Shown here: positions 11,301-31,357 of the stretch, one piece after another | Layout: each line of letters starts with the position of its first letter | Numbering within the stretch: position 1 is the stretch's first letter | Origin: Baylisascaris procyonis | Lineage: Eukaryota > Nematoda > Chromadorea > Rhabditida > Ascarididae | Assembly: GCA_037389465.1 (NCBI GenBank) | Contig: JAZARR010000127.1 | Location: forward strand, 30,448-94,447 | DNA length: 64,000 bases | Direction of reading: 5' to 3' | Program-made: the position numbers and the translations under genes | Notes under the pieces: model-generated | The model's input: the letters and a program-made list of their open reading frames with translations, nothing else | Told to the model about the DNA's origin: nothing | The model's database searches: none

Positions 11301-14292
11301 TTTTTACTACGACCAATCACCAAAATTCGGAACTATACCTGTAATTCATTTCTTTTGCTCTTGCTTTCGCAATTATGAATGATATGCCAATATACACATA
11401 TCTTTTTAGATAAAGAAAACTGATAAACATAATGATGGGCTTATAGCAAGCAGAATTTATTGAGAACAAATAGCGACTTTTCATTGTGCATAAAAAGTGG
11501 GATCAGCATCTGACATTCCTTCATTATAGCTTCCTCAACCATGGGAACATTCAATACCTTCTCTAACCCTTCTTATTGAAGCGAAGAGAAGCCGTATTTA
11601 ACTATTCGCCTTTCATTAGATCATTCCTGTGATCTATCGCCGGAAGAATCGGTTCGTGTCATCCTTGCATGTGCCTACTTCCGTCAGTAGCTCATACCTG
11701 GTAGTAGGGAATGACAAAAAGTCATCAATAAATAACCTTCCCTGAACACATCGCTGACTGCTTTATTCTGAGATATTCCATGTAATTCACTTCTTTCTAT
11801 TCGCAGAATATATGCCAAACTCTGCAAGTAAAATTCAAGTTTTTATTTGACCTTAGAAGAGGGGATTCCAAGGCTGAGCAAGTTATCCCCCTTCCTCATC
11901 GATAGCCGATCCGAGAAGGCGAAGAGGATCTCGTGTCTGTTAATCTTCCTCTTTCATCTTTCTTTCTGTCGTAATGGCAGCCCTGACAGTAATTGTGATC
12001 GAAGATCAAAGGAAACAAGTCGAGACTGGTTGGAACTATAAGCTTCTCTGCTTTCTGCACGCTTCACCAACCAGTCCCATAGGTTGTTGGCAAAGATGAA
12101 AAAAAGTGAATAATGATTTCATGTAGAAAGACACGCACTCATGAATATAACAGGACACCTTGACGAATGCAAAGTTGCAAAAATGCAAAGAAAGAAGTCA
12201 AAGATGAATGGAAACTGAAACAGAGTCTGCATTCTGCTCCACTGAACAAGCACTTCCATGAGTAGTTGGCCAATACTGGGCTACAAACACCTCAACGGTA
12301 CTTGGGGAATACGAAAAAATGTGGGTCGAAATTCACTTGTCGAACAGTCTTCACCTATTTGTTAAAGCGTACCAACGACGCATTCCAATTTTATGCTTGA
12401 AGTTGAACATTTTCAGCAGCTTATTTCAGCGTCAAACAGGAAGCCTAAATGAATCCGCGCATCCGAGGAGTTATGACTCTGCAATGGCTTCTCGGATATA
12501 GGCATCAGTTTGTCCGATGAATATAATACTATCAGAGTCATATATCATTCGCTGTCTCAAAAAGCCGCTGCTGTTTTGCTTCTATGAGTACATTTTTGAA
12601 AATGTTTTGACAGTCTGAAGAATATAAGTGTTAGCAATAGTTGAACATGGTCATCTTATTTTTAGTCCGCAGATTCATCGAGTCGGTGAATGACGTTTCA
12701 TGAGCCTTCTAAAACTGCACCAGTTAGTCCGCATGGAGCTATCTTCGAAGATTGTGGCTTTAAAAAAATGCAAAAATGAAGCGTTATGCTGATCATACAA
12801 GTCGTATTTCCATCCCATATCGTCTCTGTTTGCCATTTTAGCCTCACATTAAATCCCTCCTTAGCCGGTAAGGCGTACTTTCGTTTGAGTGCGTGAATTA
12901 CATAGATCCGCTTCAGAAGTAGCTCCTCCCTCCCTCGATATAAGACACCTCTCTTTGTAGCATCAACGCTATAACAAATCGCGCATTTCTATATCTGTGG
13001 CCTCTTGTGTCATCTTTTTGTATGTTTTTTCAACGTTTTTATGCATCAACTGTGCTTAAGGCATGCATTCCTATTTTGCTATCTTTTTTTTTTTTACTTT
13101 CTTTTCCAAAGCGATTGTGTTGAAAATGTCCGTCATCTCATAAAAGAACATCTCGTAATAAACGTCTATAATTCTATCCACTCATTCCTACCTCGCATCT
13201 TTTCAACGCGAAATTCCCTGGTGATCGTTGTGTAATTCCCAAACTGAATGTACACATTCTAATGTGCTCGAGCGTTAGTTGCACCGGCATGTTTTTTTTT
13301 TTCAACAACGTCCACTTTTTTCTAGCGATTGTGCAGTAAGCCCTCAGGAGTGACCAGCCGTCTCTCTTTCTCAGTCACTTTGCATCAACCCATCCTGCCC
13401 CCACATCATAGAAAAAAGCACTGTAACGTCGAATATGCATGAGAAGCTAAGTGCAGAAAACGATTTTTTCTTTTAAAATACAGCTAGAGCTATTAAAGAT
13501 CAACCGTTCACTCATTGTTGCTTGTCCTGTCGTCGTCACTTTCCACTCTTCCGACGAAGGGACATGCTAGTTTTAAATCAGCCTGCAATACACAAGATGA
13601 GCAAAATTCTACATTCAAAAGCATTCAGATAAATTCGAAAGCATTTGAATAAGTACGGAATATTGAAATAGCAACTCCGGATTACATTAAACGATTCAGC
13701 AACGACGAATCTATAGGAAGTATTCGGATTTCAGGTTCACATCTCTCATCTCTTCATAAAATCGTTGAATGCAAGTTGGTGAATTAAAGTAAAACGCTCT
13801 AAATCAATTTTTTATGTTTTATGTTGCATTTTGAAATGAGGCACTAATATATTTAAAGCATTTGTTTACTGAAATTCATCGAGAAAAAAAATTTTTCAGA
13901 GCGAAATGAAGCGAGAGTCTCTCAACTAATTGCATAGCACTTTCTTATTAGTGTGTGAATGCATCGTCGTTGATTTATCACAGAAGAATTTCCGAGAAGT
14001 CTTTTCCTTGAAATACACCACAATATTGCACATCAAATTCATTTCAACGATTGAAGAATCTGAAGAGTTGAAAAAAACTTCAAATTTGATCGCATTAGAA
14101 TATGATGAGCACAATCAATTAGCACTTTTTTTTATTTGTTACTTAATAAGGGTTTTGCTGTCGAATTTTCCTCCCAAAACTTCCTCTTAAACCGCAATTA
14201 CAAATGAAAAGCAGAAATCTTTTATTTTTTTTGAACAACCGAGGCATCTCAATGAATTTACTAACGCTCAGCAGGGAGATTAAGGTCGCTTC
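7500..14292. other. Long stretch without a defensible gene
   Basis: Apart from the GA microsatellite near 8365, I see AT-rich DNA with scattered short open frames. Slightly GC-richer patches at 11.85-12.05 kb and 12.3-12.5 kb have short splice-bounded open pieces on both strands, none convincing. The BEL/Pao element inserted at the right edge of this stretch. Confidence 0.45.
8365..8450. repeat. (GA)n microsatellite with purine-rich tail
   Basis: About 16 AG units from 8365 to about 8396, followed by imperfect GAAA/GGGA purine sequence to about 8450. Confidence 0.85.
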
Positions 14293-14297
14293 AATTG
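14293..14297. repeat. Target-site duplication AATTG (left)
   Basis: AATTG directly precedes the TGTCG end of the left LTR and matches 22009-22013. Five bases is usual for BEL/Pao. Confidence 0.93.
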
Positions 14298-14365
14298 TGT
14301 CGTGAACAAAACGAAGTTGGTGGTCGTATGTAGACGACAGAAAAAGATAAAGAAGAGATCGACGG

Positions 14366-14371
14366 TTTATT
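14366..14371 (-). promoter_or_regulatory. Candidate polyadenylation signal AATAAA in the 3' LTR
   Basis: TTTATT on the plus strand reads AATAAA in element orientation, about 70 nt before the LTR end. The same hexamer lies at 20935-20940 in the 5' LTR. It could direct the 3' end of R. The assignment rests only on motif and position. Confidence 0.4.
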
Positions 14372-14633
14372 AGAAAAGAGATCAACAAAGTTAAGGTCAC
14401 AATGCACGTGAAGTAAAACCAACAAGCTGCACAGGCCTGTCAAAATTAATCGGCAATATAAAAGCAATAAACGAAACAACGACAATCGAAGGCCAGAGCT
14501 TTGACTTGGGGCAGGTTGAGCGAAATGAGCAATATAACACCGAATGAGCGGGACACACCTTCAGAATATGATACTTATTGTCAACTGTCTCACGGTATGA
14601 TGCACTGAAACGCAATATAAGCACAAGAGAAAC

Positions 14634-14666
14634 GAGGTGTCGGGCGGTTGCTTTCGTGCCGACACC
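14634..14666. repeat. Hairpin plus distant inverted repeat inside the LTR
   Basis: GGTGTCGG (14636-14643) and CCGACACC (14659-14666) form a perfect 8-bp stem with a 15-nt loop. GAGGTGTCGGGCG at 14634-14646 is also the exact reverse complement of 14946-14958, the junction just 3' of the SL1 match. Both occur again in the other LTR at +6569. Confidence 0.7.
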
Positions 14667-14955
14667 CAGTTATCAACGTATCAAGGTATCAGTGCCTATC
14701 TCGTGCGGTTGATTCCGTTCACCGCAATTTCTTTTCTCCCGCTCTGAGGTTGATTCTTCGGGCTTGTGGCTACTGGACAACTTGAAAAGTAATAATTGAT
14801 TTCAACAAAGAAACCGGCCTGTTTTGATGAGGGCTCGTCCGCTTGCGCCCTTTTTCTTCTTTTTGTGCTTGGCTATACCAACCTCCTGGTTGGTCCGTCC
14901 CAAGTTTGTTCTCACGGTTCGGGGGACACCTTTTTGCGTGCGAATCGCCCGACAC

Positions 14956-14977
14956 CTCAAACTTGGGTAATTAAACC
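14956..14977 (-). promoter_or_regulatory. Exact SL1 spliced-leader sequence in the 3' LTR
   Basis: In element orientation these 22 bases begin GGTTTAATTA and end AGTTTGAG, identical to the nematode SL1 leader exon. The next bases are GTGTCG, so a GT follows directly, as at the donor of a true SL RNA. No Sm-binding site or the other SL RNA stem-loops were found in the following 100 nt, so this is not a complete SL RNA gene. Confidence 0.92.
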
Positions 14978-15009
14978 TTCTGATGCTTTACAAACAACGT
15001 AAAAACGCG

Positions 15010-15014
15010 ATATA
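15010..15014 (-). promoter_or_regulatory. TATA-like box upstream of SL1 in the LTR
   Basis: In element orientation AGTATATCG places TATAT 33-37 nt before the first G of the SL1 match, close to usual TATA spacing. The copy in the 5' LTR, which would drive the element, is at 21579-21583. If it is the core promoter, U3 is about 462 nt and R begins with SL1. Confidence 0.35.
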
Positions 15015-15439
15015 CTCGAAAAACGAATACAAAACCATCATAAAACATGATCTGAGTCAAATGCGATGATTCTGGTAATGAGCTAACGAAAAGGTACAAA
15101 CAAATGACGAGGAGAGTGAAAAAAAAACGTCACAAACTACTGACGAGATCGTGGAACTTTGAGGCAATCCACAAGTAACCATGAAAATAAAGTTTAAATT
15201 CAGAAAAAACAATGAAGAAGAAAGTGCTGACAAATGAAGTAAAGGCGCTACACTTACACGCTTACACACGACGCATTAGAAGACACGCGTTTACACACGA
15301 CCGCAACGCCGCATTAGAAGACGATATAGTCGCCACAGTCAGAGATCAACTTAGATCGTTCTTTGAGTTATTGCGTTGACACACAGTTTGATTTACTGTG
15401 TGCAGCAGCCCACTAACTCATTCGCGAATCTTCGCGACA

Positions 15440-15447
15440 CTCCGACC
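15440..15447 (-). other. Candidate polypurine tract next to the 3' LTR
   Basis: GGTCGGAG directly abuts the TGTCG start of the 3' LTR in element orientation. It is short and interrupted by TC. A longer purine run (AAGAGGGGAGGAGG) lies about 130 bp further inside, near 15575-15590. Confidence 0.4.
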
Positions 15448-15604
15448 GCAGCGAAAATACCCTTTTTAGACTGGTGCCTCGTTATCATCTATTTCGAGCG
15501 GGTACAACTGGCTTATGGGTCTGGTCCATTCATTTCCATTACCCAGTTTCACTCTTGCTGTACGTATGGATCGACCTCCTCCCCTCTTATTTCCACTATT
15601 CGAC

Positions 15605-18600
15605 CTAATTTCCACACTGCTTTGGGGGTCTCTCTTCTTCTATGATAACCACCTCGTTTATTCGCGGCTCTCTAGTTACTGATCCTCTAACGGCTCGATG
15701 ATTTCGTTGTGTTCGCTCTCGCAGCGATGTGAGATACTCTGACCGCCAGTAATTCCAGAAGCGATCGAGTGTGCTAAGTGTTGCTTTCCATCTCATTAAC
15801 ATTTTTTCTCTAGACATCACCTCCTTTGGAAGGTAGCTTGGATCTTCCTTTTCTCCCTCTTCGTTTACCGTGAAGATCAACTCAGCAGCTGGTATCAGAA
15901 AATCGATCGGCCGAATAATATCGACTGACGTTTCATGCACATAAGTGAGTGGTCTACTGTTGACTACTCCTTCTACTTCTACAATAAGTGTTCGAAACTC
16001 TTCTTCGCTTAATCGTTTTCTTCCCACTGCTTTACGAAGCGAAGTTTTGGTTAGACCTATCATTCTTTCATAAACTCCTCCTTGCCATGGAGCGAAAGGT
16101 GTTATGAAGTTCCATTTGATTTCCTCTGCTCTGCTGATTTGTCTTAGGACTTCTGCGGCGAGCGTAAAATTGCTCCCGTTGTCGCTAAATACAAGTTTAG
16201 GTTTTCCTCGTCGACTCACATATCTTTGAAAGCAGTTGAGGAACGAAGATGCTGACAAGTCATTTGCCACTTCCAAATGGACAGCGCGTGTCGTAAGACA
16301 TGTAAACAATGCTACCCAACTTTTTTGAAGTTTAATTTCATTGCCCAAAATAGCTTTCAAGTTGAACGGTCCAAAATAGTCCAGTCCCACATTTTCGAAG
16401 GCTCGCGTTACAACTGTGCGGCATGATGGTAGATCTGGCATTTTTGGAAGCTTGAACGGATGTGTGAGCCATCTACGACATTTCATGCACCTTTTCTTTA
16501 TGACCTTTTTTACCATTTCTCTCCCTTTGGCTATCCAGTATTTCGACCGCAGTTGGTTTAACGTATGGGCTGGCCCCGAATGCATTAAAATTTCGTGTTG
16601 ATGAGTAATAAGCATTTCCGTGATGGGATGTTTAGGTAGAAAAATCGGAAACTTGGTGTCTCGTGGGAGGTCTGAATAGGCAAGACGTCCTCCACATCTC
16701 CAGAGATTGTCATCGCCTCGAAAAAGCTCCCAACGCACAATCTCCGCTTTCGTGATCATTTCTTCTTGAGCCTGTCTAATGAGATGTTTTTCCGCTTCTA
16801 TTTGGTCCTCCACTCCTACTGCCTTTCTTTTCCGTTCCTTGAGGTTCTTTACGAATCTTATCACGGCAGCCGTGATTCCCTTCACTTTCCTCCAACTGTT
16901 ATACTTGCTTGCATCGATTACACAGTGATTTATGGCACAATCGTTTTCTTCTTCTGTACCGACTTCGAGCGCTGTAACTGTTGTCGTAGGTTGTTTGTTA
17001 CGGTCTCTCTTCCCTTTGCTCTTTTGAAAGATGTCTTCGCTGATTACACACTGCTGCGGATTCGAAAGTTCCCATTTCGGCCAATTCTCTTCGGATTGTC
17101 TGAGCCATGGTGGGCCATGCCACCACAAGGAACTTTCCTTAAGCTTGTCAGGATCAACACCCTTTGTCGCAATATCGCTCGGGTTTTGATCGGATGGGAC
17201 GTAACTCCACCATTTCGCCGTATTGCGCATTTGCTTTAAACAGTTTTCGATGAACCTCGTATTGATCTCTTTATCTGAACGTATCCAGTGCAACACACAT
17301 TTGCTATCGCTCCAGTAATGGGTCTCCACTTCCTCCATCGAAAGCTGTTTCTTTACGAACTCGAGTAATCGTACTCCGATGAAGGCTGCTAACAATTCGA
17401 GTCTTGGAACCGAAGCTCCCTTGACGGGGCACAGACGCGTTTTAGCCATAATTAAGTTCGTCAATACTGCACCATTTACGATTTCACGATTGTATACCGC
17501 TGCGGCGTAAGCCTGCATCGATGCATCGACAAAAACGTGCAGTTGTCTCTCCTTTGCACAACGAAAGAATATTTGACGAGGGATGTCGTTTACTGTATTA
17601 TTCCAACTTTTCTGTAATCTTTCCCACAGTAACTTCTCTTCTTCTTTCAATGAGTCATCCCATTTGTATTTCTTCTTCCATAATTCCTGAAGGAATACTT
17701 TTAATGGGACAAGCAACGGAGCCATTAATCCGAGAGGATCAAAGTGGGAGGCTACAAAGCTCAGTACTTGTCGCTTGGTTTGGGCGGCACCAATCTTGTC
17801 TTTTACACCTAGTGTTATTTTATCCTCCTTTAACGACCATGTTATTCCTAACACTTTGGTCTCTTGTACTTCTTCTCGATCTTCCGGAGGAATAGCATCA
17901 TACACTTCTTTGTTATTTGACACGAACGATCTCAAGTTCATTCCGGCACCTGCGAAAATTGCTTTTCCTTCACTACATAGTTGTATCGCTGTCTCTGAAT
18001 TTTCTGCCTGCAACATGACATTGTCTACGTACAGATTTTTTAAGATTTCTTGAGCTGTAGTGGATCCAATTTCTGTCAAATGTTTCGTCAAAGTTGCAGC
18101 AAGTAAGAATGGGCTGGAAATCATTCCGAACGGTACTCTACAAAATCGATACACTTCGATATTGTTTTCATCGACCGGACCCTTCTCTTTTACCCACAAA
18201 AACCGGGTCGTATCACGATCCTTCACATTCAGCTCCAGTTGCAGAAACGCTTTTTCTACGTCAGCAAGAACAACGTATTTAGAAGTTCGAAACCGTAACA
18301 GTATGCCTGCTAAGTCGTTTAACATCACTGGGCCTCTGAGCAATTGACTGTTCAGGGAATTACCTTTCTCGTCTTTAGCACTTGCATCAAAAACCACCCG
18401 TAATTTAGTTGTAGATTTTTGGGGGGTTAGGACTGCTTGATGTGGTATATACGAAATGAGAGGTCCATCTGGGACTTTGGGTGCCTTTTCGATTATACCT
18501 AATTCTAGCTGTTGTCGGAAGGTATCATCGTATCTTTTGAACAATTCCTCGTCTCCCTTTAAGCGTTTCAACGTGGACCTTAGTCTGCCAATGCATAGGC

Positions 18601-20824
18601 CGAAGTTATAAGGAACTTTAGGCGTGGCAGATTTCCACGGCCAGTTCACGACATATCGACCATCTTCCGATTTAGTTATTGTTGCTTTGAATTGTTCTAG
18701 TGCTGCGACATCCTCTTTTGAGTCTATTGGGTCGTCAATTCCAAGCGTTTCCAATCTCCAGAATTGGGCAATATCTGCTTCACTAGTAACTGCAGCAGAT
18801 GTCATTACTAACGCCGTATCTGCAGATGAAAAGGCTCTTTGTGTATTTAGTTTTGCATAACCACTTCCTGCTAGCATATCTCCAACTTTCGATTTGACCA
18901 GGTGGAACCCGGATGGTAATTTCTGTGAACCTTCGATCAGGTCGAAGAAGTAATCTGCACCAATTATTAGCTGCGGTTGTTCCCATTTTTCCGGAATACA
19001 CAGCCGATGCTTTTGTTTTGCGTTTGGGATGAGAATTTCGTTGGATTCAACATTTACTCTTTGAAGCTCTTTGGTCAAAAAGGGCATTGTACTGGCTCTG
19101 ATCTGTTTTTTATTTCCGTTTTTCAGTTGTAACGTAATGTTTACCTGCTTTGTATCATAACATTTCGGTTGCTGAGCGCCGAATCCCGCTATGGATATTT
19201 GGCTTCTTTTCCCAGTAGTCAGCTTCAGTTGATCACAAAGTTCTTCTGTTATGAATGATCCTTGACAACCCGCGTCAAAGAACGCAAAAATAGTTTTCCC
19301 CATTTCCGGTTTCTCCGGATTGTACACGTTCACCTCCTTACAAAGAAGCAAAACGGTCTTCTTTTCCCTTCGCTTTTGGGTGACCGCCGCTGTCAACGCC
19401 GATTCGTCAGGTGATCGGTTTACTTCCTTTTCGAAAGTGACTTTTTGTTTCCCTCTATTGTCTTCTGGTTCCTTCGGTTTACTTCCTTTCTCGGAACCAC
19501 TTTTATTCTCCCTCTTTGGGCAGAGCGCCGAGTTGTGTTCCTCTCTGCAATAGAAACACATTCCTCTCCTTGCGCAATCCTTTGCGCTATGTCCCTCTGC
19601 GAGACACCTGAAGCAAAGCCTTTTCTCTCTTATCCGACCACTGCGCTCCTTCACGGTTGCGTACTCATGGCAATCACTATTCCAGTGAGGGCCCCCGCAA
19701 AAGGCACAACTTCGTTTTTTACTTTTCGGCGCTTGATTTTCTCTCCTCCCACGGTAGTTGCTTACTGCTGAGGAAAATGCAGACGTTTCCTTTGAGTCAT
19801 ACTTTGTCGGCTTTCTGTCCCCATGACGATCTCTTCTCTGTGCCGTCATGCTACTGGTCACGCGCATTATCGTTTCTTTTCGAGCAATCAATTTGTCGAC
19901 ATACTCACGAAGTTTATCGACATTCCAAGACGGGTCTTCACTCTTTTTTTCATAAACTTCGAATAAGATCCACCTCGGCAATTTCTCTTCTACCATCAGC
20001 TCGATTATCGGATGATTCGTATCCTCATTCATCACATTTAGCTGTCTGAGAATTCTTTCGACCTCGTCTAGAACGACCCTAGGATTTCTAGGATCCGCCT
20101 GAGGCAACCTCCTCAATTCGTCATGGAGGCATTTTTTGATGAGGACTTCATTTCCATAACGCCTTTTCAAAACGTCTACCACTACTCTGTAATTGGAAGC
20201 CGTAATTGCGTATCCAGCTACTGTTGCATAAGCCGCACCCTTCAGACTACATAGTAAATAGTTGAGTTTGTTGACGTCGGGTATTGGCTGTTGATCTACT
20301 GCTGCCTCAAATGAAGACCAAAATTCAGGCCATTTGCGTATATCTCCCGAAAAAGTAGCTAGCTCCAATTTTGGGAGTTTAATTCTCGGTGCCGATCTTG
20401 GCAGTTCAGTTACCTCTTGTGCTTCAGCCTTATTTTTATCCTGTAATCCGTGGAGTAGTCTTACTGCTTTTTGTTTTCGGCTTTCGACTAGCTCAAGAGT
20501 TTCTCGAGCTTTCTCCATAACTTGGAGCACTCCATTCGGATCGTCTGCCATTTGTTGATAAATGCGATCTTCCTCTTTTGCTTCATCTCCTCTTAAACTG
20601 ATTCTCAAGGAGAGCCATTGTCCGTGATATTTTTCTAACACACCGATAGCGGCATTTATCTTATGCATGTAGCTGTCAAACTCTTCAACTTGATCTTCGA
20701 GAGAAGCAATTTGTTTAGCTGGGGGGTCGTCAATTTTTGGGACTTCTAACCCCGGGATTTCCTTCAGATACCCTATCAACCTACCCTTTGTGGGTCCCAT
20801 AGCCTGCCGATATACTCCCGACAT
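15605..20824 (-). CDS. BEL/Pao gag-pol polyprotein (1739 aa)
   Basis: One uninterrupted frame encodes the replication proteins of the element. In order: coiled-coil-like N-terminus (about 35-130); DUF1759-type gag core (about 147-320); three zinc knuckles (C373-C376-H380-C385, C404-C407-H412-C417, C423-C426-H430-C435); DUF1758-type aspartic protease with D517 in FFDAGCQGSFI; reverse transcriptase with D855 in VLADVEKAF and YVDN at 932-935; RNase H with D1100, E1143 and D1173; integrase zinc finger (H1410/H1415, C1446, C1449); integrase core D1482, D1548, E1586; and a DUF5641-type C-terminus (about 1630-1715). The RT box is YVDN rather than YVDD, and the protease box is DAG. The ATG lies 42 nt inside the 5' LTR edge, just past the primer site. 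No frameshift, stop or envelope region is seen, and 165 nt of untranslated sequence precede the 3' LTR. Confidence 0.96.
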   Translation of the reverse strand: MSGVYRQAMGPTKGRLIGYLKEIPGLEVPKIDDPPAKQIASLEDQVEEFDSYMHKINAAIGVLEKYHGQWLSLRISLRGDEAKEEDRIYQQMADDPNGVLQVMEKARETLELVESRKQKAVRLLHGLQDKNKAEAQEVTELPRSAPRIKLPKLELATFSGDIRKWPEFWSSFEAAVDQQPIPDVNKLNYLLCSLKGAAYATVAGYAITASNYRVVVDVLKRRYGNEVLIKKCLHDELRRLPQADPRNPRVVLDEVERILRQLNVMNEDTNHPIIELMVEEKLPRWILFEVYEKKSEDPSWNVDKLREYVDKLIARKETIMRVTSSMTAQRRDRHGDRKPTKYDSKETSAFSSAVSNYRGRRENQAPKSKKRSCAFCGGPHWNSDCHEYATVKERSGRIREKRLCFRCLAEGHSAKDCARRGMCFYCREEHNSALCPKRENKSGSEKGSKPKEPEDNRGKQKVTFEKEVNRSPDESALTAAVTQKRREKKTVLLLCKEVNVYNPEKPEMGKTIFAFFDAGCQGSFITEELCDQLKLTTGKRSQISIAGFGAQQPKCYDTKQVNITLQLKNGNKKQIRASTMPFLTKELQRVNVESNEILIPNAKQKHRLCIPEKWEQPQLIIGADYFFDLIEGSQKLPSGFHLVKSKVGDMLAGSGYAKLNTQRAFSSADTALVMTSAAVTSEADIAQFWRLETLGIDDPIDSKEDVAALEQFKATITKSEDGRYVVNWPWKSATPKVPYNFGLCIGRLRSTLKRLKGDEELFKRYDDTFRQQLELGIIEKAPKVPDGPLISYIPHQAVLTPQKSTTKLRVVFDASAKDEKGNSLNSQLLRGPVMLNDLAGILLRFRTSKYVVLADVEKAFLQLELNVKDRDTTRFLWVKEKGPVDENNIEVYRFCRVPFGMISSPFLLAATLTKHLTEIGSTTAQEILKNLYVDNVMLQAENSETAIQLCSEGKAIFAGAGMNLRSFVSNNKEVYDAIPPEDREEVQETKVLGITWSLKEDKITLGVKDKIGAAQTKRQVLSFVASHFDPLGLMAPLLVPLKVFLQELWKKKYKWDDSLKEEEKLLWERLQKSWNNTVNDIPRQIFFRCAKERQLHVFVDASMQAYAAAVYNREIVNGAVLTNLIMAKTRLCPVKGASVPRLELLAAFIGVRLLEFVKKQLSMEEVETHYWSDSKCVLHWIRSDKEINTRFIENCLKQMRNTAKWWSYVPSDQNPSDIATKGVDPDKLKESSLWWHGPPWLRQSEENWPKWELSNPQQCVISEDIFQKSKGKRDRNKQPTTTVTALEVGTEEENDCAINHCVIDASKYNSWRKVKGITAAVIRFVKNLKERKRKAVGVEDQIEAEKHLIRQAQEEMITKAEIVRWELFRGDDNLWRCGGRLAYSDLPRDTKFPIFLPKHPITEMLITHQHEILMHSGPAHTLNQLRSKYWIAKGREMVKKVIKKRCMKCRRWLTHPFKLPKMPDLPSCRTVVTRAFENVGLDYFGPFNLKAILGNEIKLQKSWVALFTCLTTRAVHLEVANDLSASSFLNCFQRYVSRRGKPKLVFSDNGSNFTLAAEVLRQISRAEEIKWNFITPFAPWQGGVYERMIGLTKTSLRKAVGRKRLSEEEFRTLIVEVEGVVNSRPLTYVHETSVDIIRPIDFLIPAAELIFTVNEEGEKEDPSYLPKEVMSREKMLMRWKATLSTLDRFWNYWRSEYLTSLRERTQRNHRAVRGSVTREPRINEVVIIEEERPPKQCGN

Positions 20825-20838
20825 TGTAACTGCTTAAC

Positions 20839-20856
20839 TCCCGGCTCGTGGCACCA
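20839..20856 (-). other. Candidate primer-binding site
   Basis: In element orientation TGGTGCCACGAGCCGGGA starts 10 nt inside the 5' LTR and begins with TGG, the complement of a tRNA CCA end. I could not match the remaining bases to a specific tRNA. Confidence 0.6.
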
Positions 20857-20866
20857 AAATTTTTTC

Positions 20867-22008
20867 CGTCGTGAACAAAACGAAGGTGGTGGTCGTATGT
20901 AGACGACAGAAAAAGATAAAGAAGAGATCGACGGTTTATTAGAAAAGAGATCAACAAAGTTAAGGTCACAATGCACGTGAAGTAAAACCAACAAGCTGCA
21001 CAGGCCTGTCAAAATTAATCGGCAATATAAAAGCAATAAACGAAACAACGACAATCGAAGGCCAGAGCTTTGACTTGGGGCAGGTTGAGCGAAATGAGCA
21101 ATATAACACCGAATGAGCGGGACACACCTTCAGAATATGATACTTATTGTCAACTGTCTCACGGTATGATGCACTGAAACGCAATATAAGCACAAGAGAA
21201 ACGAGGTGTCGGGCGGTTGCTTTCGTGCCGACACCCAGTTATCAACGTATCAAGGTATCAGTGCCTATCTCGTGCGGTTGATTCCGTTCACCGCAATTTC
21301 TTTTCTCCCGCTCTGAGGTTGATTCTTCGGGCTTGTGGCTACTGGACAACTTGAAAAGTAATAATTGATTTCAACAAAGAAACCGGCCTGTTTTGATGAG
21401 GGCTCGTCCGCTTGCGCCCTTTTTCTTCTTTTTGTGCTTGGCTATACCAACCTCCTGGTTGGTCCGTCCCAAGTTTGTTCTCACGGTTCGGGGGACACCT
21501 TTTTGCGTGCGAATCGCCCGACACCTCAAACTTGGGTAATTAAACCTTCTGATGCTTTACAAACAACGTAAAAACGCGATATACTCGAAAAACGAATACA
21601 AAACCATCATAAAACATGATCTGAGTCAAATGCGATGATTCTGGTAATGAGCTAACGAAAAGGTACAAACAAATGACGAGGAGAGTGAAAAAAAAACGTC
21701 ACAAACTACTGACGAGATCGTGGAACTTTGAGGCAATCCACAAGTAACCATGAAAATAAAGTTTAAATTCAGAAAAAACAATGAAGAAGAAAGTGCTGAC
21801 AAATGAAGTAAAGGCGCTACACTTACACGCTTACACACGACGCATTAGAAGACACGCGTTTACACACGACCGCAACGCCGCATTAGAAGACGATATAGTC
21901 GCCACAGTCAGAGATCAACTTAGATCGTTCTTTGAGTTATTGCGTTGACACACAGTTTGATTTACTGTGTGCAGCAGCCCACTAACTCATTCGCGAATCT
22001 TCGCGACA
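20867..22008 (-). repeat. 5' LTR of the BEL/Pao element (1142 bp)
   Basis: Gap-free copy of 14298-15439 with two differences, both within the last 20 nt in element orientation (20867 and 20886). Its internal end reads CG where the 3' LTR has the canonical CA. This is the promoter copy and it carries the second SL1 match at 21525-21546. Confidence 0.97.
21525..21546 (-). promoter_or_regulatory. Exact SL1 spliced-leader sequence in the 5' LTR
   Basis: Identical to 14956-14977. In the 5' LTR it is placed where the element's transcript could start, with the TATA-like box at 21579-21583 just upstream in sense orientation. Confidence 0.92.
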
Positions 22009-22013
22009 AATTG
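22009..22013. repeat. Target-site duplication AATTG (right)
   Basis: AATTG directly follows the right LTR and matches 14293-14297. Confidence 0.93.
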
Positions 22014-25000
22014 ATCGCTCTGTAAAGGTACCTAGAAACTTAAAAATAACACCATATATAATGGGCAAGGAATCAGGCCATAAGCAAATTTAACTGAGTT
22101 TCTCATCTGATTGTTTTTTGTTTGAATGGGGTGCTTGGTGCAAAGACTATGTAGATGCGTATGTAAACTATTGTATTTGAAGCATATACTATAAATCTGG
22201 TGTTTAGAACCGTTAACTGTTAGGTTTTCACTAGCGTAGTTCCTGAAAATTTTACTATAGATCGATGGGGGCACAAAAAGAATTTCTCAAACATTTGTGC
22301 ATTTGATCTGAAAAGAGAAGGAAAAAAATTTATCACTAAAATCAATTTCATTGTTTCTGAATCCCTCAGAGGTGATCATTCCAACAGTCGCGATTTAAAG
22401 ATTAGTAACGTTTTCTTAATGTTTCGTCGACTCCTTTGTTTGTCTTCATTGCAATCAGATTGGTAATCGTAAACATAACATTTTGCACTGTGTTGCATTT
22501 TTCCATCCATCTATAGATCATTAACATATTGATGGTCTCTGAAAGAAATTTCATCATTTGTTTCTCCTTCATCATCTTTAATAGCTACATTTCTGATTGA
22601 ACGATCAGCAACCTCTTTGTTTTCTTTGTATTCGCGCTATCGCGACACTATCTTTGTTTATATTGAGCAGAGGAGTATGTATGCATTTTGCATGAGTGAA
22701 AGAAATTATTATTTTTTATGAATATGGAATATGGTAAGGAAATTAAAGCGCTATGAATACGTTAAAGTGCATCAAAAATACCAAGTCTGCTGATGAAAAA
22801 AGATTTGAGAACTTAAGGGGATTTAAGACTTATGCCGACAACCGTTTTCATCCATCCACTTCTCCATATATGTAGGATGAAGAAGAGGAGGGAGTAGTGG
22901 GGGAGGGGACACGTCCGCAAACCTTGGGATTCCAAGCACTATTTAATAATTAAACGGGAATTAAATGCAGGAAATGATGGAAATTCTGCAAGTATACAGA
23001 AATTCTTTAGGTATAAGAGCAACGTATATGTTCATCGATATCAGATATTAGAGAATTTGTTTAAAAGTGCTTTCAGAGGCACTCTTGAACACCTTTCACC
23101 TATTGGGCGGTTCCAGTTTCCTGTGTCTATGAAAGAACAATCGATTTCAACCATCTATAATAAATGCGATATGAGCTCAATGACATATGAAGCTCACTGA
23201 AAGGTACTTTCGCTTTTCGCTATTTTTGCACAATTATTCTCATGCAATAATTTGGGCAGAAATGATCGTATAAGATAGCAGCGTCTAGTCCATAAATGGA
23301 ACTACTTATTATGGCTATGCAATCGCAGCGAATTGGCTCAATTATAGATATTCGTTTAACACTCATATTCTCCATTATTCTCCTTCTTACTAAAGAAGGA
23401 CATACTAAGCTACTTTCATTCGACCTTCCATTCACTTCAGACCTCAACAGCTGATGATGTTTTGCAGCTATTTCGGGCAGTTCCTTGCCGATGCACTCTT
23501 TCATTCAATAGTATCGCTAGGTGGGCAAGCGCTACCATGCTGGGCCTATAAACGTACCCATTTCAACAGCCAAAATACATGCAAATACAACGTTTTCTCT
23601 AAATTCTCGCATATGGGTGCATAATAAGCTTTATTATCCTTGGTCACCATTATACAAATTGATTGGTGGCTACAATGGACGTATTCTGCTGTGTCTTTCG
23701 TCCCACAGTAAATACATGCATCAGTATAGACAACTAAAGACATGTTTGGGATCTAAAATTCTTTTCACTCTGTATTCTTATTGGCTGTTTAAATAAAAAT
23801 TTCAGTCCGCATTCTTCTAAAATGTCTGAATTCTTCTTGAATTGGCAAAAGGAAAAACTTTGAAGTGAATGAAAAGACGAATGAAAGTATGTACCTGTAA
23901 TATGCAAATGCTTTGACACTTTTGGTTTCATCTGCAATCCTGAACAGCTATAGGATTCCGATTACATTTATACTCGTGAAGTATAACAGCTCGCTATTAA
24001 AGAGTTGGCAGTTTCTATCGTAAGGAAAATCTGAAATTACGAGATAAATATGCTTTGAGTAGAAGTACATCTCCAATTATTGTTGAAAGCTTCCCTCGGA
24101 AAAGAGCGAACATTTATGGCAATGTTCGCATGTCATTTCATTGGCTAATCGTTTCGAGAACAAAGTATAATGCTTTTTGGCATAATGATTTGTCGCCAGT
24201 CGGGTGGCATCTCACTAGAGGTACATCTTCATATGGTAAATGATCACACATTTCCCGTAGCTTTATTTGTTACATTAAGAACGCCATTCTACAACCTCAA
24301 ATGTTCATGGCCGCTTCATTTTGTCTACTTGATGACAGTTTTTTGAAGTGTTTCATAAGCCATGCAGTTCTTTGCCAACCGAAACAATCGAAGCTGTTTG
24401 CAGCATCTAGTAGGATCTGCCAATTGCAATTTGAACCGTTGCAAGGATGATTACCTTTCGGTGAATTATTTATTGATTCGAAAAGTATAAATGCTGATGT
24501 CGTGGTCCCTGTGTATGTTTGATGATAGTTCGATGCGGGTGGTCATTTTATGGCGAGTTTCGCTTCATTTGAAACACAATTTGACTGGCTATTCAAACGA
24601 AATATCTCTGTTAGCGTCATTATTGCTCCCTCAGGAAATCGAATTGATAGGCATCGTTCATGTTCCCGAGATCACCATTTCAGATGCCGCTCGTAATTCT
24701 AATTTATTTCAAATCGCTTCATTCAACAAGGGAATTGCTGATTGCAATAATGGTTGCGTAAATGTGTTTGTTTTTATGTAAAAGTATAACATAGAAACAA
24801 ACTCACATCATTGTTTTTCTTCGTAGAAACAAACGGCATCAATGAGAAAATTGCAACGTGATGAACAACGCCATGACCCTTTTTTATATTTTCCCGTCTA
24901 TAAATGTTAACGATATTCGATAGACTTCCTTAATATTATAAGTGTTTTTGTTGAAAGTTTCTCCACTCATATCGAATGAAGGAGGCGACTCTATGGTAAG

Positions 25001-30250: not shown

Positions 30251-31357
30251 TTACTTAGATTACTTAGAATTCGTTATTCAACGAGATGTCCCTGTCGCAA
30301 CAGACAGTCCCGTGACGACGTTCCGCACGATGCCCTTCCATAACGATCTGTCTACTGCTTTTCTTCTCCATGTTGTTCCTACATTTGTCTTGAGGAAGTC
30401 TTCCCATCTGCGTGGTGGCCTTCCTCTGTGTCTTTTGCGATCTCTTGGACACCACTGCAGTATTCTGGCGCTCCACCTATTGTCATCTTTGCATGCAACA
30501 TGGCCGGCCCAGCGTAATTTGTTTAACTTGTATTCAATTACTACGTCCTTCAGCAACGTTCTTTGCCTTATCACTTCGTTTTTCACTTTATCGCGGAGCG
30601 ATATTCCGAGCATTGATCTCTCCATTGCTCGTTGTGTTGTTTGTAGTTTTTTCTCTTCTGCGGCTGTTAGCGCTCAGGTTTCGCTACCGTATGTCATTGC
30701 TTTCAAGACTGTAGAGTTGAACAGTTTCGGTTTCGTTTCTCGCTTGAGTTTTGATTTTAGGATATCAGATATTTCTTTGAATTTACTCCAGGCGGCTCTT
30801 TGTCTTCTAGTGATTTCTTCCTTCAGATCGTTGTCCATCCTGACTGCTTGTCCCAAGTAAACGTAGCTTTCCACTTCTTCTATATGCTCGTTGCCAAGTT
30901 TTATTCCGTCGCAAGGCAAGTCTTTTGACTTCATGAACTTGGTTTTAGTTTTGTTGACCTTCAGACCGATTTTTGCATCTTCCCTGTCCAATTCCATCAG
31001 CATTTTTTGTAGCTCATCCGTTGAGCTACCTATGAGGACAATGTCGTCGGCGAACCTTAGGTGGTTTAGCTTCTCGCCGTCAATTGTAATACCTTCTGTC
31101 CAATTCAACTTACGCATCACCATTTCGAGGCAAGCAGAGAATAGCTTAGGAGATATCGTGTCACCTGCTTGACTCCTTTACAGACTGGGATTTGTAACTC
31201 GTTATTGAACAGGGTAATGCTCGTGAAATTGCCCTTTTGCGCTGACTGAAGTAGTTTAATGTAGCCGGGGTGGATTCCTTGGTCCTTTAGTGCTTCGAGC
31301 ACTGCATTGACCTCCACGCTATCGAACGCCTGCCTTTTCGAAGTCCACAAAGGCGTA
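30251..31357 (-). mobile_element. 5'-truncated RTE-type non-LTR retrotransposon
   Basis: A minus-strand LINE fragment of 1107 bp. It starts inside the reverse transcriptase domain (at the FVDFEKAFD block) and runs to a short 3' tail made of two CTAAGTAAT-like units (30251-30268). The 9-bp duplication ACTGCGGAC flanks both ends, so this is one target-primed insertion truncated at its 5' end. Very short 3' sequence and a tandem-repeat tail are typical of RTE-clade elements. The coding part has two frame changes and one nonsense codon. Confidence 0.88.
30278..31357 (-). pseudogene. Broken RTE reverse transcriptase, C-terminal part
   Basis: Read on the minus strand, homology continues through three frames-worth of damage. 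The DFEK-AFDSVE block is disrupted by extra bases near 31328-31336. The GVKQ-GD block (RT motif 4 region) has lost one base near 31162-31166. A TGA at 30674-30676 stands where relatives have Trp after YGSET. Between the breaks the catalytic box FADDIV and the downstream conserved text YVYLGQ are intact. After the stop come LRWAGHVA and RGRPPRRW, the usual RTE C-terminal signature, ending at TGA (30278-30280). The endonuclease and the first RT blocks are absent by truncation. Confidence 0.9.

What the first reader, a model, noticed from the sequence alone, without database searches (positions are those of the whole stretch)
14956..14977. A perfect SL1 spliced leader is embedded in the LTR of a BEL/Pao retrotransposon
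Seen: both LTRs carry, in the sense orientation of the element, all 22 bases of nematode SL1 (starts GGTTTAATTA, ends AGTTTGAG; second copy 21525-21546), followed by GT. A 22-base exact match is not chance. Known: SL1 is the leader trans-spliced onto many chromadorean mRNAs, and the NeSL-1 LINEs target SL genes. I do not know an established account of SL1 as an internal LTR component. Inference: the element either transcribes RNA that begins with SL1, mimicking host mRNA 5' ends, or captured SL1 by copying a trans-spliced transcript into R, or could even donate the leader.
Basis: partly seen in the sequence, partly recalled or inferred. Interest (0 to 1): 0.92.

Follow-up and report, generated by a model that had tools for sequence, protein, structure and literature searches.

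The report
SL1 leader built into retrotransposon LTRs
In this nematode genome, BEL/Pao jumping genes carry the worm's 22-base spliced leader inside their own terminal repeats, apparently exactly where their RNA begins, so their messages would look like ordinary leader-tagged worm messages without needing trans-splicing.

Summary
Both LTRs (1141 bp, one mismatch) of a BEL/Pao element with an open 1739-aa gag-pol frame carry an exact SL1 in sense. It is not a private insertion. The genome holds 981 exact SL1 copies, 261 of them SL RNA genes. SL1 lies at this LTR site in 36 of 40 U3-selected LTRs of the family; the other 4 have one substitution. A second BEL/Pao family, 35% identical in protein, has it too (30 of 40 LTRs exact).

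Several lines put the RNA 5' end at SL1. No ATG occurs from SL1 to the gag-pol start 722 nt downstream (about 9 expected in the LTR part). In the second family the last upstream ATG is at -11 and the rest of the LTR has none. Linkage between LTR sites is lowest in an interval containing SL1. Two mutant SL1s are each shared by both LTRs of two independent insertions, so SL1 is inherited in element DNA rather than re-added each cycle.

Exon-exact borders suggest origin from a trans-spliced RNA. Donor activity is unsupported. SL1 beside PAO elements is published for Brugia malayi; the internal LTR cap-site role is the new part. No RNA data were available.

The parts
20868..22008 (-). 5' LTR (1141 bp)
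   Evidence: BLASTN of the two copies, 99.9%
14299..15439 (-). 3' LTR (1141 bp); target duplication CAATT on both sides if the LTR is read TGTCG...CGACA
   Evidence: flanks read by eye
21525..21546 (-). SL1 copy in the 5' LTR; inferred first nucleotides of the genomic RNA (start of R) at 21546
14956..14977 (-). SL1 copy in the 3' LTR
15002..15010 (-). TCGCGTTTT, 33 to 25 nt before SL1; the same 9-mer begins 30 nt before SL1 in family B; possible core-promoter element
   Evidence: 236 of 10000 shuffles reach a 9-mer, so modest
14899..14908 (-). anti-SL1 word CAAACTTGGG, pairs with SL1 nt 11-20 in RNA (a second copy lies 6569 bp higher in the 5' LTR)
14634..14646 (-). CGCCCGACACCTC, 13-nt complement of the SL1 3' end plus the following bases
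14366..14371 (-). AATAAA, only one in this LTR, starting 73 nt before the LTR end; candidate poly(A) signal
20839..20856 (-). TGGTGCCACGAGCCGGGA, candidate primer binding site, also directly after the family B LTR
   Evidence: which tRNA: not tested
15605..20824 (-). gag-pol ORF, 1739 aa

Best explanation
The SL1 copy is the DNA-encoded 5' terminus of the element's genomic RNA. The U3 promoter starts RNA polymerase II transcription at the first G of SL1. Genomic RNA, which is also the gag-pol mRNA, therefore begins with GGTTTAATTACCCAAGTTTGAG without trans-splicing, and SL1 is the first part of R. It was probably taken over from a trans-spliced RNA copied by reverse transcriptase. It is now inherited like any other LTR sequence and kept because the element gains from a leader-like 5' end (translation, or resemblance to host mRNA). 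Shown: position, recurrence in two families, inheritance of SL1 mutations, ATG-free leader. Inferred: start site, promoter, origin, benefit.
For: 1) ATG desert. Family A has 0 ATG in the 679 nt from SL1 to the LTR end (shuffle mean 8.6, 0 of 2000 as low), and the first ATG after SL1 is gag-pol at +723; U3 has 7 in 462 nt. Family B has 0 in 546 nt (mean 6.3, 1 of 2000 as low), 22 in 762 nt of U3, the last at -11. Of 21 family A haplotypes 17 have none in this part and 4 have one. 2) Linkage between LTR sites is lowest across 378-495 (mean r2 0.04-0.05, four-gamete 94-95%), which contains SL1, as expected if U3 and R-U5 come from different copies at strong-stop transfer. 3) Inherited SL1 variants: T9C in both LTRs of two insertions with unrelated flanks; G22C in both LTRs of two insertions with unrelated flanks; T8G, A7T and T3C each in both LTRs of one element. 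4) Recurrence: family A 36 of 40 LTRs exact, 4 with one substitution (with 4, 51, 52, 61); family B 30 of 40 exact, 5 with one substitution, 5 without (with 4, 60, 69, 80). 5) Similarity to the SL RNA gene stops at the exon borders. 6) SL1 can pair with a different downstream word in each family (within 130 nt: A 0 of 1000, B 6 of 1000 shuffles).
Against: No RNA data: start site and cap are not measured. The ATG desert and linkage locate the 5' end but do not by themselves separate a start site from a trans-splice site. Mutant SL1 shared by the two LTRs of a single element could arise by one reverse-transcription error; only T9C and G22C are shown in two insertions. Linkage is low over 118 bp, not at one base, and some of the 21 haplotypes were picked by SL1. 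SL1 diversity within family A is low (0.0087 vs 0.046 LTR-wide) but that set was partly picked by SL1 and other LTR stretches are as low; one-base SL1 variants are not rare. The shared 9-mer upstream is modest and the last 40 nt of U3 as a whole are not significantly alike. Over the whole LTR remainder the anti-SL1 word is weaker (A 10, B 26 of 1000), and the family B stem has no unusual folding energy (z -0.14). Some old copies have ATGs after SL1. Three other BEL/Pao families here, one element each, lack SL1, so it is not needed for the BEL/Pao life style; the later part of the C59 LTR is ATG-free too.
Confidence: 0.72

Rival explanations
1. Host SL RNA adds SL1 to element RNA by trans-splicing each cycle, and reverse transcription writes it into R again; the LTR copy is a repeatedly refreshed print of the leader.
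For: Exon-exact borders. Perfect SL1 in most copies of two families (with the calls named above). Short duplications of the SL1 3' end right after SL1 (TTTGAG, ATTGAG, GTTTGAG, TCTGAG), of which the TTTGAG type is what splicing onto the AAG inside an older SL1 would leave. Authors of PMC7181701 infer trans-splicing for Brugia PAO.
Against: T9C and G22C variants are each present in both LTRs of two independent insertions, which refreshing would erase. Bases before SL1 (CATCAGAA, GCGAATAAA) are not a typical TTTCAG acceptor; SL1's own GAG end would be a poor one (recalled consensus). The possible parents of the TCTGAG case are not close relatives, so plain duplication explains it as well.
Confidence: 0.13
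2. SL1 was captured once (or a few times) by a trans-spliced RNA and is carried along passively; RNA starts elsewhere.
For: SL1 single-base variants occur even in elements with long open frames.
Against: The ATG desert begins at SL1 in two families; SL1 is 22/22 in both although BLASTN finds no other similarity between the two LTRs except a short stretch just before it.
Confidence: 0.1
3. The LTR RNA works as an SL donor (an SL RNA mimic).
For: SL1 is followed by GT in family A, and SL1 can pair with a downstream word.
Against: Of 19 family B copies read with SL1, 14 have GC after it and 1 has GT; some end in GAC. A permissive Rfam scan of the element (E up to 1) finds nothing, whereas the SL RNA genes of this genome are found by the same kind of scan (RF00198, E 2.4e-12).
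Confidence: 0.02
4. SL1 is a DNA-level initiator element: it is kept because the SL1 sequence itself helps place RNA polymerase II, as recalled for Ascaris SL RNA genes in vitro, rather than for what it does in RNA. Compatible with the main explanation.
For: Near-fixed spacing from an upstream shared word; recalled work of Hannon, Maroney and Nilsen (not read here).
Against: No upstream similarity between LTR and SL RNA genes; not tested.
Confidence: 0.2

Closest known systems
PAO elements with SL1 in Brugia malayi (Foster et al. 2020, PMC7181701; passages read)
   Same: Exact SL1 copies outside SL RNA arrays; 60 of 120 lie within 1 kb of PAO elements, occasionally one on each side on the same strand
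   Different: There described as flanking and explained by trans-splicing plus integration. Here placed inside the LTR at a fixed site with an ATG-free leader after it, in two distant families, with inherited mutations.
BEL/Pao (Belpaoviridae; example Ascaris Tas) (PMC8742986 whole short text; PMC3118150 passages and term counts)
   Same: Domain set, LTRs, tRNA-type primer site, single gag-pol ORF
   Different: No spliced leader in the first text, and the terms spliced leader and trans-splic occur 0 times in the main text of the second; three other families of this genome lack SL1
Cer1 of C. elegans (PMC3315495, passages)
   Same: LTR element RNA and SL1 meet in a nematode
   Different: Cer1 has a real acceptor; the short mRNA occurs with and without SL1 and the 8-kb RNA was not SL1-spliced; SL1 is added, not encoded
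Dinoflagellate retrogenes with spliced-leader relics (PMC12014239, start of abstract in listing)
   Same: A leader copied into DNA through a trans-spliced RNA
   Different: Host retrogenes, not LTRs; no role as the element's own cap site
NeSL-1 LINEs (recalled; named in the finding)
   Same: Nematode retroelement linked to SL1
   Different: They insert into SL RNA genes; here SL1 is part of the element

Membership tests
BEL/Pao LTR retrotransposons | Pao-type peptidase with RT and integrase | tested here: met
   PF05380 1.3e-48, PF00078, PF17921 over cut-off; rve 2.8e-05 with a score below its cut-off
BEL/Pao LTR retrotransposons | Two near-identical LTRs flanking the coding region | tested here: met
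   1141 bp, one mismatch
BEL/Pao LTR retrotransposons | tRNA-complementary primer site after the 5' LTR | tested here: inconclusive
   TGGTGCCACGAGCCGGGA present and shared with family B; matching tRNA not searched
BEL/Pao LTR retrotransposons | Short target duplication | tested here: met
   CAATT here, CCAAC at C199, by reading the printed flanks; the C185 copy has a longer repeat instead
SL RNA genes | 22-nt leader exon | tested here: met
SL RNA genes | SL RNA structure and Sm-site part after the exon | tested here: not met
   No Rfam match up to E 1 in 14200-22100; sequence after SL1 unrelated to the SL RNA gene of this genome, which matches RF00198 at 73.7 bits, E 2.4e-12, just under its cut-off of 75
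SL1-PAO elements as in Brugia malayi | PAO element with same-strand SL1 near both ends | tested here: met
SL1-PAO elements as in Brugia malayi | Common descent with the Brugia elements | not tested
   Brugia loci not at hand; filarial proteins P0010 and P0012 do not join family A or B in the RT-peptidase tree, and whether their LTRs hold SL1 is unknown

The most novel reading that the evidence does not exclude
BEL/Pao elements have hard-wired the host's spliced leader as their own cap site (whether once or more often is open), escaping the need for trans-splicing. In family B the only AATAAA in the 3' half of the LTR abuts SL1, so the terminal repeat R may be SL1 itself. Every SL1-trans-spliced host mRNA would then begin with the element's R, which could let the element's reverse transcriptase join host cDNAs to its U3.
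Probability: 0.3. Interest if true: 0.88.

Novelty: new variant of a known kind. Interest (0 to 1): 0.7.

Why it matters
If true, a genomic parasite makes RNA that carries the host's trans-spliced leader without being trans-spliced. That would separate what the SL1 sequence does from what trans-splicing and its cap do, give natural SL1 variants to compare, warn that SL1-anchored RNA-seq will call such RNAs trans-spliced, and offer a route by which leader-tagged RNAs enter LTRs.

Tried and rejected
Chance: rejected (0 expected; 981 against 0 reversed). Private insertion: rejected. SL donor: not supported. The first Rfam scan at gathering threshold proves little, because that threshold also missed the real SL RNA genes; hence the permissive scan. 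Re-splicing from the SL1 3'-end duplications: the suggested parents (L100, L101) are not close relatives of L026, inconclusive. Extra base between U3 and SL1 as a cap mark: G at C219 (both LTRs) and C270 (one place), A at C265 (two places) and C59, none before an exact SL1 in family B, though L107 has a G before a mutant SL1; not used. Alignment of the last 40 nt of U3 in A and B: not significant (808 of 5000 shuffles); the shared 9-mer is modest. Number of gains: holding A, B and L012 as one clade is rejected (p-AU 0.003), but not with P0001 added (0.056), and counted on the labelled rows alone one change is enough (support 89/89), since the LTRs of the rows in between are unknown; so one gain, several gains, loss or LTR exchange all stay open. 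Viral contigs: no SL1. Species: not identified.

Unanswered: the gapped pattern for CGCGTTTT before SL1, the search for the COX1 family, and the search with P0012.

Full report
WHAT IS THERE. The SL1 22-mer occurs exactly at 14956-14977 and 21525-21546 on the minus strand, with no other match within 3 mismatches in the window and none expected by chance. Both copies lie in the LTRs (1141 bp, one mismatch) of an element on the minus strand. Its 1739-aa ORF has the BEL/Pao domain set. LTR position 463 is the first G of SL1.

THE GENOME. The window lies in an unnamed 272.8-Mb genome. SL1 occurs there 981 times, against 0 for the reversed pattern (only about the first 100 places are listed). 261 are SL RNA genes by a 37-base pattern; one such array was read, carries 5S rRNA, and its SL RNA scores 73.7 bits with RF00198 (cut-off 75, E 2.4e-12). 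56 copies follow directly on AATAAA and 72 follow CATCAGAA as here (76 listed, 4 of them mutant).

FAMILY A (this element). A search with U3 only, so not selected by SL1, scored 40 of 197 candidates. Of the 30 fetched, 26 have exact SL1 and 4 one substitution; the other 10 were not read but are exact by their places. So 36 of 40 are exact and none of the 40 lacks SL1. Ten further family A elements found through their peptidase gene and not already listed as exact were read in 18 stretches: 7 exact (one with an extra G before SL1 in both LTRs), 3 with one substitution; one of these stretches was cut by its end.

FAMILY B. L013 carries a 1933-aa BEL/Pao ORF, 35% identical to the window's. Its LTR is 1308 bp with SL1 at position 763, and the same candidate primer site follows it directly. 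A U3-only search scored 40 of 80 candidates: 30 LTRs exact, 5 with one substitution, 5 without SL1 at the site. The 5 without are one tandem array (C195), of which one unit was read (L072); the others end their match at the same point and are not there. Outside SL1 and a short stretch before it, BLASTN (E up to 1e-5) finds no similarity between the two LTRs.

WHERE THE RNA STARTS. In family A no ATG occurs in the 679 nt from SL1 to the LTR end (shuffle mean 8.6; 0 of 2000 as low) nor before the gag-pol ATG at +723, while U3 has 7 in 462 nt. Of 21 haplotypes 17 have none, 4 have one. In family B the numbers are 0 in 546 nt (mean 6.3; 1 of 2000 as low) and 22 in 762 nt, the last at -11; after the LTR, one short upstream reading frame starts where the LTR meets the primer site and another ATG lies 8 nt before the assumed start. 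Some old copies (for example L015, L028, L089) do have ATGs after SL1. An ATG-free leader is expected of a scanned 5' leader, so this puts the 5' end at or within about 10 nt of SL1, whether by transcription start or by trans-splicing. In a control family without SL1 (C59) the ATGs also stop part-way through the LTR, so the desert marks the leader, not SL1 as such.

LINKAGE. Among 21 family A haplotypes (some picked by SL1), U3 and later LTR variants combine almost freely, with lowest linkage for pairs across 378-495 (mean r2 0.04-0.054, four-gamete 0.94-0.95) against 0.11-0.33 elsewhere and up to 0.61. Strong-stop transfer between two RNAs predicts exchange at the U3/R border. The interval contains SL1 but is 118 bp wide.

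ENCODED, NOT RE-ADDED. T9C occurs in both LTRs of C185 and of C199 elements, which sit in unrelated flanks. G22C occurs in both LTRs of C48 and C82 elements, also in unrelated flanks. T8G (C134), A7T (C88) and T3C (C95) occur in both LTRs of single elements. If the host re-supplied SL1 at each cycle the first two would be erased. A single reverse-transcription error explains only the one-element cases.

ORIGIN. Similarity to the SL RNA gene ends at the exon borders: upstream the longest shared words near the same place are 4 (A) and 6 (B), downstream the sequences differ after the GT of family A or the G of family B. That fits copying from a mature trans-spliced RNA rather than from an SL RNA gene. 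Brugia authors drew a like conclusion (PMC7181701, passages). In a tree of RT-peptidase pieces A and B do not group, and three SL1-less families of this genome lie nearer A, with moderate support (85 to 89%). One clade of A, B and L012 is rejected (p-AU 0.003), but not when P0001 is added (0.056), and counted on the labelled rows alone a single change suffices, because the LTRs of the rows in between are unknown. One gain, several gains, loss or LTR exchange remain possible. On contigs C1-C88, 24 of the 50 listed peptidase places have an exact SL1 within 7 kb (compiled, the latter scoring 150 of 263 candidates); two of the rest (C48:452184, C82:2376369) have the G22C form and one (C88:2578508) the A7T form.

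SMALL FEATURES. SL1 can pair with CAAACTTGGG at +70 in A (0 of 1000 shuffles over 130 nt, 10 over 657) and CTTGGGTAA at +120 in B (6 of 1000 over 130 nt, 26 over 524); folding is better than shuffles in A (z -2.1) but not in B (z -0.14). The 9-mer TCGCGTTTT begins at -33 in A and -30 in B (236 of 10000 shuffles reach 9). In B the only AATAAA near SL1 is at -6 and none follows in the LTR; in A the only one is at +606. If the B signal is used, R would be SL1 or little more: inference.

VERDICT. Most likely SL1 is the encoded 5' end of the element's RNA. What it does for the element is not known from sequence; a leader-like 5' end for translation or resemblance to host mRNA is the best guess. SL1 near PAO elements is known from Brugia. 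The LTR-internal, start-of-RNA placement with inherited variants was not seen in the listings of searches or in the papers opened from them (passages or short text); these cover open-licence PMC papers only, and searches listed only part of their hits.

Noticed in passing
G000:C89 about 531900-609800 and from 2618500 on (L009): Arrays of SL RNA genes (261 in the genome by one pattern, the places listed all on C89), with units of about 1112 bp (with 5S rRNA in L009) and about 875 bp.
   Followed up: partly
L001, L004, L018, L019, L020, L024: A third repeat of about 185 bp that begins exactly with SL1, with differing upstream sequence and inverted pieces at some loci. Several hundred of the 981 SL1 copies are not assigned to SL RNA genes or the two LTR families.
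   Followed up: partly
G000:C78:125220-164639; also C22 and C66: Chains of SL1-bearing LTRs at regular spacing, seven at about 6567 bp on C78, as if tandem elements shared LTRs.
   Followed up: no
G000:C185:3185774 (L098, L032): A family A element flanked by a direct repeat of about 28 bp instead of 5 bp, its 5' LTR lacking the first T: possibly integrase-independent insertion.
   Followed up: no
G000:C195:55631-73527 (L072): Five matches to family B U3 at 4333-bp spacing that stop 8 nt before SL1; in the one read (L072) unrelated sequence follows.
   Followed up: partly
L014: Two identical 1354-bp inverted copies around a family B LTR.
   Followed up: no
G000 C59:4166085, C88:1241468, C31:74979 and others: Other BEL/Pao families with long open frames (2208 to 2490 aa) and LTRs without SL1; in the 650-bp LTR of C59 the ATGs also stop after position 206.
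   Followed up: partly
window 30677-31177 (-): Fragment with an RVT_1 reverse transcriptase match, not part of the BEL/Pao element.
   Followed up: no
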